Below, one piece after another: positions 32,490 through 36,620 of a DNA stretch of 64,000 nucleotides (positions within the stretch are counted from its first letter, which is position 1; each line of letters starts with the position of its first letter). Source of the DNA: Flavobacterium zhairuonense (GTDB lineage Bacteria; Bacteroidota; Bacteroidia; Flavobacteriales; Flavobacteriaceae); contig NZ_SJSY01000068.1 of assembly GCF_004352915.1 (NCBI RefSeq), positions 1 through 64,000 of the forward strand. The letters run 5' to 3'. Under the pieces are notes generated by a model that worked only from the letters and a program-made list of their open reading frames with translations, was not told the origin of the DNA and searched no databases. The translations under genes were made by a program, and so were the position numbers.

Positions 32490-34247
32490 TTAGTGAAGTA
32501 TTTGTCTAGGTAATCTAACTTTTAAATACTCTTCTAATTTCTGTGATCTTAATGATCCAAACATTATATCTTGGGCAATAAAAAAATCATCAATCGTGAT
32601 TTTATTATCTCCATCCATATCTATAGCGTCATTAGACATAAAATCTAAAATTGAGTTTAAAATAAAAGTAAGGTAGTATTTCATGTGAGAAATATTTACG
32701 TGAATATTATTTTTTATTGCCGCATTATGAACAATTTCATTTCTAATTCTGTATAATCTAGTTAAATTCCAACGAATATTCTCAGAGTGCTTTCTTATTG
32801 CGGTACTAATATTACTCGGATCTTGTACCCATTTTTGGAAATAGAGGGCTCTAAATTTTAAAAGTTCATTATCTGTGTTTGCAATAATCTCATTGTATTT
32901 ATTATTTTTTGTTAAATAAAGTAAAGAATCATCAAAATCAGTAATAGATTGATCTAAATTGTGTCTTCTTAAAGTATTGTGAAAATCTAACAAATTTCGT
33001 TTTGCATATATTAAAGAATGAGAAGTCGAATAGTACTTACGTATGCGATCAATAGTTTTCTCTTCGGCATTAAAGGAAGTAAAAATATATTCCAAACCTA
33101 TCCAATAATTTAGTAGTTTAGTTTCAAGTTCTGGAGATTCACCTCCAGTTCTTAAGTATCTTATTGCAGAAAAAATTTTGTCATATGAGTCTGCGTCTAT
33201 ATTATTAGAATTTATTTTTTTGATTTTATTAAGTAAACGTTCAAATGAATTTTCCGTATAATCGATATAAGCATCAATTTGATAATTCACTGGAATTGTT
33301 CTTGATTTAGAAGGATCTTCTTCCCCAATTACTGCTGCTTTATCATAGATATCAATGCTTAAACTATTGTGTCCTAAGTGATATAAATCTAAGTCTTTTG
33401 ATAATTTTTCTCTTGTTATCTCTAATGCTTTAAATGGATCAAGAGAAGAGACTTTTAAGGCAATCATCTTTGACATTTTATTATCTTCAAGGAAATCATA
33501 AACTCTTTGAGAAACTATAGGTTTAAATTCCTTTCTTATTTTTTTATTAATAACTAAATAGTTGGGATCTATTTTTTGAAGTTGTGATATTTCAAAATTA
33601 TGGCTTTGAATACTAAATAAAACTTTGAAATTCTCTGCTTGACGATTTTTTAATGTAATCCACTCATTATACCTTTCAGAAAATCCATAATTAGCATCTT
33701 TTTTGTATATAAATAATACTTGAAATAAATTATATAAATAATTTTTTGCATAACCTTTGTTAATGAGTTCAGTAAATAAATAGTTCAGATGTAGTAGTAC
33801 TTTTTTTATTTCATTATAAATTAAATCATCACTTTGCGTGTCATCAAAATTATTTAAAGAGTTTTCAATTTCATCAAATAAATACTCAAGATAATTTGAA
33901 TTTTCTTGAAGTATAATTCTACAAGCTTGAACAATTCTAGAATAATTCTCTTTTTTTGTACTTTTTAATAGCTCTAAAAAATATTGTCTATTTACTTTTG
34001 AGAATTTAAGTCCATCATTGTTTTCATTCAAAATATTTGCCAGTTCTGCAGCGGTTGCCTGTGAATAATCATTATTGGTCAAATAAGTTAATTGGCATGT
34101 TGAAACTAATTCTTCAATTAAAGATTTTGGATTATGAAGCCTCAATTTATAAGAGTCTAAACTTCCTTTATAAAGTAATTCACTAGTTTTGGCAATAAAA
34201 ATTCGTTGAATTTTGTTTACAGGATAATTTAAGATAATATTTTGCAT
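32490..34247 (-). CDS. Orphan protein with HEPN-like C-terminal region and EF-hand-like loop
   Basis: 585 residues from the ATG at 34245-34247. A longer in-frame version from 34325 runs through a probable RNA gene and is rejected. No signal peptide. Residues 1-350 are helical and not recognised. Residues 365-535 resemble the ApeA/HEPN group: KLLNYWIGLEYIF, then R-I-R-N-E-I-V-H (R502 to H507), which fits the RNxxxH motif of HEPN ribonucleases. DMDGDNKITIDD (543-554) fits a calcium-binding EF-hand/dockerin-like loop. The gene is AT-rich, flanked by repeats and without operon partners, which suggests acquisition. A defence or RNase role is inference only. Confidence 0.7.
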   Translation of the reverse strand: MQNIILNYPVNKIQRIFIAKTSELLYKGSLDSYKLRLHNPKSLIEELVSTCQLTYLTNNDYSQATAAELANILNENNDGLKFSKVNRQYFLELLKSTKKENYSRIVQACRIILQENSNYLEYLFDEIENSLNNFDDTQSDDLIYNEIKKVLLHLNYLFTELINKGYAKNYLYNLFQVLFIYKKDANYGFSERYNEWITLKNRQAENFKVLFSIQSHNFEISQLQKIDPNYLVINKKIRKEFKPIVSQRVYDFLEDNKMSKMIALKVSSLDPFKALEITREKLSKDLDLYHLGHNSLSIDIYDKAAVIGEEDPSKSRTIPVNYQIDAYIDYTENSFERLLNKIKKINSNNIDADSYDKIFSAIRYLRTGGESPELETKLLNYWIGLEYIFTSFNAEEKTIDRIRKYYSTSHSLIYAKRNLLDFHNTLRRHNLDQSITDFDDSLLYLTKNNKYNEIIANTDNELLKFRALYFQKWVQDPSNISTAIRKHSENIRWNLTRLYRIRNEIVHNAAIKNNIHVNISHMKYYLTFILNSILDFMSNDAIDMDGDNKITIDDFFIAQDIMFGSLRSQKLEEYLKVRLPRQILH

Positions 34248-34274
34248 AATTATTGTAAGTTCTTTATACCTTTG
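34241..34274 (+). promoter_or_regulatory. Candidate plus-strand promoter for a small RNA
   Basis: TTTG at 34241-34244, a 22-bp spacer, then TACCTTTG at 34267-34274, matching the Bacteroidota -33/-7 pattern. Transcription would begin near 34281. No protein gene follows on this strand, but a terminator does at 34365. Confidence 0.45.
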
Positions 34275-34280
34275 TAAAAG

Positions 34281-34396
34281 TAAACAATTAAAACAAAAAT
34301 ATAGAAAGGGGCTTGGAATTCTCATATTGCTTAGGTAATTTAGTTTTCCTTCCCCTAGGTACAGAAGGCTTATCTTTGTAAGATGAGCCTTTTTTT
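34281..34396 (+). ncRNA. Candidate small structured RNA, about 115 nt
   Basis: A plus-strand terminator at 34365-34396 (12-bp stem, 3-nt loop, seven Ts) has no upstream gene on its strand for 2 kb. Before it, GGGG-CTT-GGAA (34308-34318) can pair with TTCC-TT-CCCC (34346-34355), giving a rod with an internal loop. A promoter-like pair sits at 34241-34274. The layout resembles a 6S-type or similar small RNA. The class is not established from sequence alone. Confidence 0.45.
34365..34396 (+). terminator. Plus-strand terminator with no protein gene upstream
   Basis: AAGGCTTATCTT / AAGATGAGCCTT (one G-T pair), loop TGT, then seven Ts. On the minus strand there is no T run, so it acts on plus-strand transcripts. 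Confidence 0.85.
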
Positions 34397-34593: not shown

Positions 34594-34622
34594 AAAAAAA
34601 TCCCGCCTCAATTAAGAAACGG
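34594..34622. repeat. 29-bp direct repeat, distal copy
   Basis: An exact copy of 35337-35365 (core TCCCGCCTCAATTAAGAAAC). Unlike the lysA-side copy it is followed by AACTT instead of GATTA. On the minus strand it can still form a weaker hairpin (AGTTCCG with CGGGATT, two G-U pairs) before a T run, so it may end the small downstream ORF. Confidence 0.9.
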
Positions 34623-34646: not shown

Positions 34647-34802
34647 TTAAAAACTAAGTTTAAACTCAATTTTATTTATTTCATCTTGTTTTCCAGACTT
34701 AAATTCGATATTTTTAAGATTATCGAGAGATGCATCCACAATAATTTTTGAGTCTTTAATTGTTGATCTTTTAGCCTTAATTATTTTTTTTATATTTTTC
34801 AT
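34647..34802 (-). CDS. Small basic protein coupled to DUF6934
   Basis: A 51-residue ORF, Lys-rich, opening MKNIKKIIKAKRSTIKDSKI and ending INKIEFKLSF. It is not in any family I recognise. Its ATG (34800-34802) overlaps the TGA of the frame-restored DUF6934 gene as ATGA, strong evidence for translational coupling and for a real gene. It lies 25 bp before the distal 29-bp repeat. It could be the partner of a two-component module (inference). Confidence 0.6.
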   Translation of the reverse strand: MKNIKKIIKAKRSTIKDSKIIVDASLDNLKNIEFKSGKQDEINKIEFKLSF

Positions 34803-35265
34803 TTTCTTTTAATTAAAAAACCATCATAGTCTTTTTTATAATCAAAAGGCTCATCTATGATTTTATTATTATCAATCATTCTTGCACCAAATAATCAAAA
34901 GTTTCTGATAATTCCTCTAGATTTAACATTATTGCCCTTTTGTAAGTATTTGTTCTTCTGGTATCACTCCCTCTAAAAAAGATGGTTATATGAGGATTTA
35001 CACTTGTAAATTCATAGGCAGTTTTTATTACAGTTGCTAAAACCATTCTAATATCTCCATTATCATTTGTGACTTGATCGTCTATAATGTATTTCTGTTT
35101 TAAAGAATCATATTTTAAATCTCCAAAACCAAGATTATAGACATTTGGATTTGTTGTAGAAGAATAAACAACTACTTTTTTGAAATTTCCTTTATGTCCT
35201 TTGCTTGTAAAATGAAACACTGTGGATAATTCATTTTTGATAAGAGCATATTTTCTGTAATTCAT
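34799..35265 (-). pseudogene. DUF6934 gene with an internal frameshift
   Basis: The open frame from 35265 gives 129 residues with DUF6934 features: FHFTSKGHKGNFKKVVVYSS, YNLGFGDL, NDNGDIRMVLATVIKTAYEFT and FFRGSDTRRTNTYKRAI. It stops early at 34876. In the next frame the sequence continues FGARMIDNNKIIDEP then YKKDYDGFLIKRK, the expected family ending, and stops at 34799-34801. One missing base in the TTT of TATTTG (about 34890) explains both. Restored length is 155 residues, normal for the family. It could be a true mutation, an assembly error or programmed frameshifting. The family's function is unknown. Confidence 0.82.
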
Positions 35266-35336: not shown

Positions 35337-35365
35337 AAAAAAATCCCGCCTCAATTAAGAAACGG
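35337..35365. repeat. 29-bp direct repeat, lysA-side copy
   Basis: Identical to 34594-34622. This copy is the working lysA terminator, so the repeat pair brackets the DUF6934 module and looks like a duplication made on insertion. Confidence 0.9.
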
Positions 35366-35396: not shown

Positions 35397-36620
35397 TTAA
35401 ACCGTAGCAGCAATTTCTTGTGGCAACGGAATTTGATTTTTTAACAAATCTTCAAATGTTTCAGCTTGGCGAATTAAGATTCCTTGTCCGTTCATCCATA
35501 AAACTTCAGCAGGTTTGTATCTTGAATTGTAGTTGGATGACATTGAGAAACAATATGCTCCAGCATTTCTGAAAGATAAAATGTCACCTTCCGTAATTTC
35601 TTGAATTCTACGGTTGTTAGCGAAAGTATCAGTTTCGCAAATGTATCCTACAACAGAGTAAAAACGCTCTTTTCCTTTTGGGTTTGAGATGTTTTCAATA
35701 TGGTGTGAGGATCCGTACAACATTGGACGAATTAAGTGATTGAAACCACTGTCAACTCCAGCAAAAACTGTTGAAGTTGTTTGTTTTACTACGTTTACTT
35801 TTACTAAGAAATGACCTGCTTCAGATACAAGGAATTTTCCTGGTTCGAAAATAAGTGTCAAATCTCTGCCGTATTCTGTACAGAAAGCGTTGAATCTTTT
35901 TGATAATTTTTTACCTAATTCTTCGATGTCTGTTTCGATATCGTCTTTTTTGTAAGGCACTTTGAAGCCGCTTCCGAAATCTAAGAATTGTAGATCTTTG
36001 AAATGTTTTGCAGTATCAAACAAGATTTCAGCAGCATACAAGAATACTTCGATATCTAAAATATCAGATCCTGTGTGCATGTGAATTCCGACAATGCTCA
36101 TTTTTGTGTTTTCAACAATTCGCAAAATATGCGGAATCTGGTGAACAGAAATTCCGAATTTACTATCGATATGTCCAACAGAAATGTTAGCGTTTCCGCC
36201 TGCCATTACGTGTGGATTAATACGAATACATACCGGAATGTGTGGATGTTTTGTTCCGAATTGCTCTAAAATAGATAAATTGTCGATATTGATTTGTACA
36301 CCCATTGCGGCAACTTCTTCGATTTCTTCTAGAGAAACGCCGTTTGGTGTAAAGAAAATTCTTTCGGGTTCATAGCCAGCATGAAGTCCTAACAAAACTT
36401 CCTGAATAGATACAGTGTCTAAGCCAGACCCCATGTTCTTTAATAACTGAAGAATCGCAACGTTAGACAATGCCTTCATGGCGTAATTAACTCTTAAGTT
36501 TTCTACCTTAGAGAAAGCTTTAGTTAATCTGTTGTACTGAGATTGGATTTTTTCGGCATCGTAAACATACAATGGACTTCCAAATTGGTCTGCTAACTGC
36601 AGTAAATCTTTTGCTTGCAT
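35397..36620 (-). CDS. lysA: Diaminopimelate decarboxylase
   Basis: A 407-residue PLP enzyme of the alanine racemase-like fold that makes lysine from meso-diaminopimelate. PLP lysine K49 in NYAMKALSN. MSIVGIHMHTGS (phosphate and catalytic His region), FEPGKFLV, and the C-terminal cysteine C328 in ICETDTFA, contributed to the partner's active site. Length is normal. It is a single gene with a textbook promoter and terminator. Confidence 0.95.
   Translation of the reverse strand: MQAKDLLQLADQFGSPLYVYDAEKIQSQYNRLTKAFSKVENLRVNYAMKALSNVAILQLLKNMGSGLDTVSIQEVLLGLHAGYEPERIFFTPNGVSLEEIEEVAAMGVQINIDNLSILEQFGTKHPHIPVCIRINPHVMAGGNANISVGHIDSKFGISVHQIPHILRIVENTKMSIVGIHMHTGSDILDIEVFLYAAEILFDTAKHFKDLQFLDFGSGFKVPYKKDDIETDIEELGKKLSKRFNAFCTEYGRDLTLIFEPGKFLVSEAGHFLVKVNVVKQTTSTVFAGVDSGFNHLIRPMLYGSSHHIENISNPKGKERFYSVVGYICETDTFANNRRIQEITEGDILSFRNAGAYCFSMSSNYNSRYKPAEVLWMNGQGILIRQAETFEDLLKNQIPLPQEIAATV

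What the first reader, a model, noticed from the sequence alone, without database searches (positions are those of the whole stretch)
34647..35265. Possible two-gene module: DUF6934 plus a coupled 51-residue basic protein
The restored DUF6934 stop and the small ORF start overlap as ATGA. That is classic translational coupling. The small ORF is too short for ordinary gene callers and is highly basic (about 11 Lys). A family of unknown function with a coupled tiny partner resembles toxin-antitoxin or regulatory pairs.
Basis: partly seen in the sequence, partly recalled or inferred. Interest (0 to 1): 0.66.

Follow-up and report, generated by a model that had tools for sequence, protein, structure and literature searches.

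The report
DUF6934 with a tiny coupled partner
A protein family of unknown function in Bacteroidota is nearly always followed by a gene for a tiny basic protein that probably binds it, which looks like an undescribed toxin-antitoxin-type pair; the copy in this window has lost the end of the larger protein but kept the small one.

Summary
On the minus strand a frameshifted DUF6934 gene (PF22028, E 3e-35) is followed by an intact 51-aa basic ORF; the stop of the lost DUF6934 frame overlaps its ATG as ATGA. The small ORF is a real gene: against five relatives dN is 0.02-0.26 and dS 0.16-1.18.

Pairing is a property of the family. Of 79 DUF6934 loci from GTDB genomes, 70 have a 45-75-aa ATG ORF starting -5 to +40 nt from the stop, against 6 of 325 control genes. 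Partner and DUF6934 distances agree (r 0.83, best shuffle 0.16). Natural fusions exist, one partner carries a LuxR-type DNA-binding domain, and the pair occurs on plasmids. In a read-through chain AlphaFold folds the partner confidently (pTM 0.84), which suggests docking. DUF6934 most resembles the GNAT acetyltransferase fold, but weakly (Z at most 6.4) and without sequence support.

Best reading: a toxin-antitoxin-like module, DUF6934 as effector and the small protein as antidote. Toxicity is untested. The window copy is decayed; only the partner is intact.

The parts
34876..35265 (-). DUF6934 gene, open frame of 129 aa; frameshifted near its C-terminus, the last C-terminal strands of the family are lost
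   Evidence: PF22028 E 3.1e-35, residues 2-124 on profile 1-119 of 145; intact relatives L078, L080, L082, L083
34799..34893 (-). Remnant of the DUF6934 C-terminus in another frame, ending with a TGA that overlaps the small ORF's ATG (ATGA)
   Evidence: Sequence compared with intact relatives; last family codon in frame is 34896-34894
34647..34802 (-). Intact 51-aa basic partner gene (stop included)
   Evidence: Relatives after DUF6934; dN/dS; no Pfam, NCBIfam or PADLOC family above cut-off
35338..35365 (-). Intrinsic terminator after the upstream decarboxylase gene 35397-36620 (PF02784 E 1.3e-47); first copy of a direct repeat
   Evidence: Hairpin -16.1 kcal/mol, z -5.1; single copy behind the same gene, without the pair, in 4 of 12 loci looked at
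34595..34622 (-). Second copy of that terminator, directly after the small ORF
   Evidence: Hairpin -12.8 kcal/mol, z -4.6; exact 28-base match, two copies in this genome

Best explanation
DUF6934 and the small basic protein form a toxin-antitoxin-like two-gene module with the larger gene first. DUF6934, a compact alpha/beta protein with a conserved polar set (K30, N44, D63, N69-G70-D71, R104, Y108 in L082 numbering), is the effector, probably an enzyme. The partner of about 50 aa, started at or just after the effector's stop codon, binds it through its conserved part (consensus IVKIDKSLDKY...LFPEKLEKANEML) and keeps it inactive; in at least one lineage the partner also has a DNA-binding domain, as an autoregulating antitoxin would. 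In this window the effector has lost its C-terminal strands and only the partner is intact. Shown: recurrent pairing, co-inheritance, purifying selection on the partner, fusions, plasmid carriage. Predicted: the complex and the fold. Inferred: effector activity and neutralisation.
For: Pairing 70 of 79 (strict window, chosen after seeing the loci) and 76 of 79 (loose), against 6 and 57 of 325 control genes. HMMs trained on one half of the partners find 73 of 79 (36 of 38, 36 of 38 and L121). 37 of 38 further places, many of longer, diverged subfamilies, have a 50-81-aa ORF after DUF6934 (loose window to +110, and two of the 38 repeat places). The pair is isolated: a same-strand ORF of at least 100 aa within 40 nt in 8 of 72 upstream and 5 of 78 downstream. 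Distance agreement r 0.83 over 71 pairs. dN well below dS. Fusions in G114 and G543. GerE domain on the L087 partner, E 4.2e-13. Read-through chain of L144: pTM 0.84, partner core pLDDT 87-93. Patchy: 52 of 299 genus genomes, 15 of 296 in the phylum draw, one genome with 8 copies. Identical pair on plasmids of two genera, another pair beside a ParA gene on a third plasmid. Partner intact where the adjacent DUF6934 is replaced or broken.
Against: No toxicity or neutralisation data. The partner is strongly basic (median pI 9.9) and DUF6934 near neutral (6.0), unlike many toxin-antitoxin pairs (recalled). Of 64 partners scanned, only L087's has a DNA-binding domain. The excess of broken DUF6934 genes over broken partners is no more than their 3:1 length ratio would give (11 of 12, P 0.16). 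Neighbours include many metabolic genes and show no clear defence-island setting (no background rate computed). The GNAT match is weak (Z at most 6.4) and a GNAT profile shows no sequence similarity. A solo clade (L019, L026, L027, L085) has DUF6934 without a partner. The docking is read from confidence scores, without coordinates or a control chain.
Confidence: 0.5

Rival explanations
1. A permanent two-subunit enzyme or binding complex without toxicity: the small protein is a structural or targeting subunit that DUF6934 needs in order to fold or act.
For: Frequent pairing, distance agreement and fusions fit an obligate complex as well as a toxin-antitoxin pair; a basic partner could bring DUF6934 to nucleic acid.
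Against: The partner stays intact where the adjacent DUF6934 is gone (G289, G250; G289 has a long-type DUF6934 elsewhere), stands alone or in tandem (L127, L106), and several DUF6934 subfamilies have partners of other sequence types. Patchy distribution, many copies in one genome and plasmid carriage are unlike a housekeeping complex.
Confidence: 0.27
2. An anti-phage or stress-triggered module in which DUF6934 is the effector and the small protein the sensor or release switch.
For: Same anatomy as toxin-antitoxin defence pairs; mobile, patchy, sometimes multicopy. A few neighbours match PADLOC models such as DpdF, AbiLi and AriA.
Against: No PADLOC model matches the window proteins or two other partners; no clear defence setting; no match of one DUF6934 query in 50,697 phage records.
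Confidence: 0.12
3. Roles reversed: the basic peptide is the toxic part and DUF6934 is its antidote.
For: Small, Lys-rich peptide.
Against: The peptide ORF stays intact where the adjacent DUF6934 is broken or gone: the window, G121, G250, G289, L105, L172, L284. That should be lethal if the peptide were expressed and toxic.
Confidence: 0.07
4. The small ORF is a chance open frame.
For: A loose ORF of 38-145 aa follows 57 of 325 control genes.
Against: Conserved sequence, purifying selection, position and strict control rate.
Confidence: 0.01

Closest known systems
PF22028 (DUF6934)
   Same: The larger protein belongs to this Pfam family.
   Different: Pfam describes a protein of unknown function; the partners scanned have no family of their own in Pfam, NCBIfam or PADLOC (Pfam on all, the other two libraries on three partners).
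GNAT-type type II toxin-antitoxin pairs (TacT/TacA, AtaT/AtaR with DUF1778 antitoxins)
   Same: Two-gene unit; the DUF6934 model aligns to AtaT and TacT chains among other GNATs (6ajm Z 6.0, 7ak9 Z 6.0).
   Different: The partner lies downstream and matches no ribbon-helix-helix family in Pfam; no acetyltransferase profile is matched; the third helix starts with an NNGD motif after an insert. In AtaT, G108D blocks acetyl-CoA binding (passages of PMC7595197), so cofactor use is doubtful here.
Reverse-order type II pairs (HigBA, MqsRA, HicAB)
   Same: Effector gene first, antidote second (mqsRA and hicAB in passages of PMC7167474; HigBA from search listings and recall).
   Different: No match to their families in the Pfam scans; the partners here are mostly about 50 aa and lack a recognisable DNA-binding domain.

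Membership tests
PF22028 DUF6934 | Match above Pfam's gathering score | tested here: met
   121.8 bits against a cut-off of 27, E 3.1e-35
Type II toxin-antitoxin system | Two adjacent co-directional genes forming one isolated unit, one product small | tested here: met
   70 of 79 strict pairing; no same-strand ORF of at least 100 aa within 40 nt in 64 of 72 (upstream) and 73 of 78 (downstream)
Type II toxin-antitoxin system | Antitoxin binds toxin directly | tested here: inconclusive
   Predicted only: read-through chain of L144, pTM 0.84, partner core pLDDT 87-93; distance agreement
Type II toxin-antitoxin system | Larger protein stops growth and the small one reverses it | not testable with these tools
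   Needs expression in cells
Type II toxin-antitoxin system | Antitoxin with a DNA-binding domain and autoregulation (common, not universal) | tested here: inconclusive
   No Pfam domain above cut-off in the window's partner; GerE in 1 of 64 partners scanned, L087
GNAT / DUF1778 toxin-antitoxin pairs | GNAT fold of the toxin | tested here: inconclusive
   48 of the 50 listed rows are acetyltransferases by title or recalled identity, Z 5.6-6.4, 101-127 residues at 3.2-4.8 A; Foldseek best E 0.03
GNAT / DUF1778 toxin-antitoxin pairs | Sequence similarity to acetyltransferase profiles | tested here: not met
   hhalign of 72 DUF6934 against 27 GNATs of the same genome: probability 0.1, no positive control run; no acetyltransferase family in Pfam at E up to 1
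GNAT / DUF1778 toxin-antitoxin pairs | Ribbon-helix-helix DUF1778 antitoxin | tested here: not met
   No such hit for the window partner or the 64 partners

The most novel reading that the evidence does not exclude
A large undescribed family of toxin-antitoxin modules across Bacteroidota, built on a GNAT-like fold without the usual acetyl-CoA loop (and so possibly a new chemistry), neutralised by a basic antidote of about 50 aa that is encoded second and comes in several sequence types, and already travelling with resistance genes on plasmids.
Probability: 0.35. Interest if true: 0.75.

Novelty: new variant of a known kind. Interest (0 to 1): 0.6.

Why it matters
DUF6934 has no described function, and no paper in the searched library names it. 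Tying it to a co-inherited small partner turns 'unknown function' into a direct experiment: express the large protein with and without the small one. If toxic, it adds a widespread family to toxin-antitoxin biology in a phylum where few such families are characterised (recalled), and the pair might help to hold plasmids of Riemerella and Myroides, where identical copies lie among resistance genes.

Tried and rejected
RNase H-like fold: my first guess from the strand order of the AlphaFold model; the structure comparisons listed GNATs instead.

GNAT homology by sequence: hhalign of DUF6934 against 27 GNATs of the host genome gave nothing. Solved-structure searches by sequence gave no hit for DUF6934 and nothing credible for the partner, best E 0.62.

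A defence-island reading: the tallies cover 134 proteins (133 of 141 nearest neighbours of at most 900 aa, plus the L087 partner) and list only the top 25 of 186 Pfam and 84 PADLOC families. They show many metabolic genes; mad2 matches 4 members, AriA 2, DpdF and AbiLi one each. No background rate was computed. The five decarboxylases are the same gene upstream of the pair in five Flavobacterium loci.

Selective loss of the toxin before the antitoxin: 11 broken DUF6934 genes with an open partner were seen in overlapping sets (the window, G121, L023, L025, L088, L105, L161 with L170, L172, L279, L284 and a plasmid copy), against one broken partner (L283); in G083 both are degraded. DUF6934 is three times longer and 11 of 12 has P 0.16; dropped as proof.

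Link between loss of R104 and loss of the partner: true for the four-member solo clade, but some longer subfamilies have K at that place and keep a downstream ORF; dropped.

Programmed frameshift: the window and G121 are shifted at the same place by different amounts, and the other three relatives compared are not. I read this as two independent indels; an assembly error in the window cannot be excluded.

First alignment for the complex model (A4) misplaced the short rows; replaced by A6. The viral scan with one protein found nothing, with A3 one contig.

Full report
What is there. On the minus strand, 3' of a pyridoxal-dependent decarboxylase gene (35397-36620; PF02784 E 1.3e-47), lies a DUF6934 gene of 129 codons (34876-35265; PF22028 E 3.1e-35). 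It leaves the family's frame after residue 124. The family's C-terminus, ending GFLIKRK, follows in another frame; its TGA (34801-34799) overlaps the ATG of a 51-aa ORF (34802-34647, stop included) as ATGA. Four close relatives have the intact version with the same 4-nt overlap (L078, L080, L082, L083). A fifth, G121 (L005, L086), is frameshifted at the same place by a different amount.

The small ORF is a gene. Against five relatives (L082, L080, L078, L086, L083) dS is 0.157, 0.624, 0.833, 1.178 and 1.130 and dN 0.024, 0.067, 0.076, 0.193 and 0.259. It has 12 Lys in 51 residues and a computed pI of 9.85; over 76 partners the median pI is 9.9 and the median net charge +7, against pI 6.0 for DUF6934. 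No Pfam, NCBIfam or PADLOC family matches it above cut-off.

Pairing. In the genus, DUF6934 relatives occur in 52 of 299 genomes. Of 31 loci fetched, 27 have a separate ORF of 47-71 aa at or near the DUF6934 stop, one is a fusion and three (L019, L026, L027) have neither. A scan of GTDB genomes found 332 relatives and kept 79 loci, from Flavobacterium, Capnocytophaga, Mucilaginibacter, Pedobacter, Dyadobacter, Spirosoma, Niastella, Algoriphagus and others, with two records labelled Ignavibacteria and one labelled Acidobacteria. An ATG ORF of 38-145 aa starts between -45 and +75 of the stop in 76 of 79, against 57 of 325 control genes of at least 150 aa in the same loci. With 45-75 aa and -5 to +40, limits set after seeing the loci, the figures are 70 of 79 and 6 of 325. 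HMMs trained on one half of the partners find the partner of the other half: 36 of 38 and 36 of 38, plus L121, where it starts at +135; 73 of 79 in all. Four more (L088, L120, L122, L131) show the motif by eye. In L129 a similar ORF lies convergent on the other strand, by eye only. L085 has none. The ATGA-type overlap occurs in 17 of 76; 65 of 76 start at or before +15.

A wider look at 38 further places, many of longer and diverged subfamilies, gave a 50-81-aa ORF after DUF6934 in 37 of 38. The window there was loose (to +110), and two places repeat loci. The exception, L283, has a broken partner, and its DUF6934 lacks the conserved Tyr. Many of these partners do not match the HMM of the short type: over all loci 131 of 180 distinct DUF6934 genes have a hit to it (partly circular, as training members are included). 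So the arrangement is more conserved than the partner sequence. A four-member clade (L019, L026, L027, L085) has no partner by HMM.

Co-inheritance and fusions. Distance matrices of 71 pairs correlate at 0.83, highest of 1000 shuffles 0.16; outside Flavobacterium 0.81 for 55 pairs by locus number, highest shuffle 0.26. Five of the 76 partnered loci were left out (L086, L087, L110, L128, L136). This shows that the two genes travel together, not that they touch. G114 has both parts in one frame of 198 codons, and a split DUF6934 in G543 runs into a partner-like tail (HMM E 0.008). The L087 partner, 139 aa, carries a LuxR-type HTH (PF00196 E 4.2e-13, residues 68-121); it is the only one of 64 partners scanned with a DNA-binding domain.

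Structure. DUF6934 of L082 is predicted with mean pLDDT 92.3 and pTM 0.86. Of 50 VIA-align rows 48 are acetyltransferases by title or recalled identity and two are ornithine decarboxylase antizymes, Z 5.6-6.4; AtaT and TacT toxins are among them. The tool's own note says that Z under 8 may mean only a common arrangement. Foldseek's best PDB E-value is 0.03; in viral models 14 matches reach 0.001, mostly unnamed phage proteins. A second model from another member gives much the same picture at Z up to 5.6. A GNAT profile from the host genome shows no sequence relation. Residues at 70 or 71 of 71 in the paired set include S21, G23, K30, N44, D63, N69, G70, D71, R104 and Y108. For the complex I let L144 read through its stop into the partner: mean pLDDT 86.6, pTM 0.84, linker under 50, partner core 87-93. 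A free partner should pull pTM down, so I take it as docked; this is inference from a prediction, without coordinates or a control.

Setting. The pair stands apart from its neighbours (same-strand ORF within 40 nt upstream in 8 of 72, downstream in 5 of 78). Neighbours include many metabolic genes and a few matches to defence models; no background was computed. The pair occurs on plasmids, with matches in 4 of 72,556 records: an identical pair lies among macrolide and beta-lactam resistance genes in Riemerella anatipestifer and Myroides albus, another lies beside a ParA gene in Spirosoma rhododendri, and a split copy lies on a 4.8-kb Riemerella plasmid. One query found no match in 50,697 phage records; one viral contig in IMG/VR carries it.

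Orphans and decay. In G250 the body of DUF6934 is replaced by a DUF4262 gene at the same locus, with the last codons of DUF6934 and the partner left. In G289 a GIY-YIG gene precedes the intact partner; that genome has a long-type DUF6934 elsewhere. G102 and G083 hold degraded copies. Broken DUF6934 with an open partner was seen eleven times in overlapping sets (see Tried and rejected); given the length ratio this is no clear asymmetry. It does argue against the peptide being the toxic part.

Literature. No paper in the held library names DUF6934 or PF22028 (open-licence PMC only). Passages seen by word search, not whole papers: GNAT toxins pair with DUF1778 and DUF4065 antitoxins (PMC9177977); AtaT needs G108 for acetyl-CoA binding and Y144 for catalysis (PMC7595197); toxin-first order is known in mqsRA and hicAB, and chromosomal pairs decay by deletion and nonsense mutation (PMC7167474).

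Verdict. The two-gene module is solid. Direct binding is likely. Toxin-antitoxin function is the best of several readings, at about even odds, and one expression experiment would decide it.

Noticed in passing
34595-34622 and 35338-35365: The terminator of the upstream decarboxylase gene is duplicated on both sides of the pair. The 28-base core is found in 30 of 299 genus genomes, once in 26 and twice in 4, this one included. In 4 of 12 loci looked at it follows the same gene without the pair, in some with a GIY-YIG-like gene next.
   Followed up: partly
L037 (G250), 985-1653: A DUF4262 gene (PF14081 E 7e-28) sits where DUF6934 was, with the DUF6934 tail and the partner kept.
   Followed up: partly
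G000:C71:73751-74107 (L002, L167): The host genome has a second, longer DUF6934 relative with its own 69-aa downstream ORF of another sequence type.
   Followed up: partly
L309, L310 (plasmids NZ_CP072192.1, NZ_CP102755.1): An identical DUF6934 pair (same two protein accessions) lies among macrolide and beta-lactam resistance genes on plasmids of Riemerella and Myroides.
   Followed up: partly
L087:4454-4870: Partner protein fused to a LuxR-type DNA-binding domain.
   Followed up: yes
L106:601-1355, and L127 about 3.2 kb before its pair: Three partner-like ORFs in tandem after one DUF6934, and an extra partner ORF away from the pair.
   Followed up: no
L162, L260, L265, L266, L268, L274, L275, L289, L290, L293: A long DUF6934 subfamily has a cysteine-rich insert before its R-I-R/K-x-Y motif, perhaps metal-binding.
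   Followed up: no
32490-34325 (minus): 611-aa ORF next to the pair with no Pfam match above cut-off.
   Followed up: no
model of L082 DUF6934: Foldseek matches with probability 1.00 to large uncharacterised phage proteins (Vibrio phage VP-1, Erwinia phage phiEa2809, Dickeya phage RC-2014).
   Followed up: no
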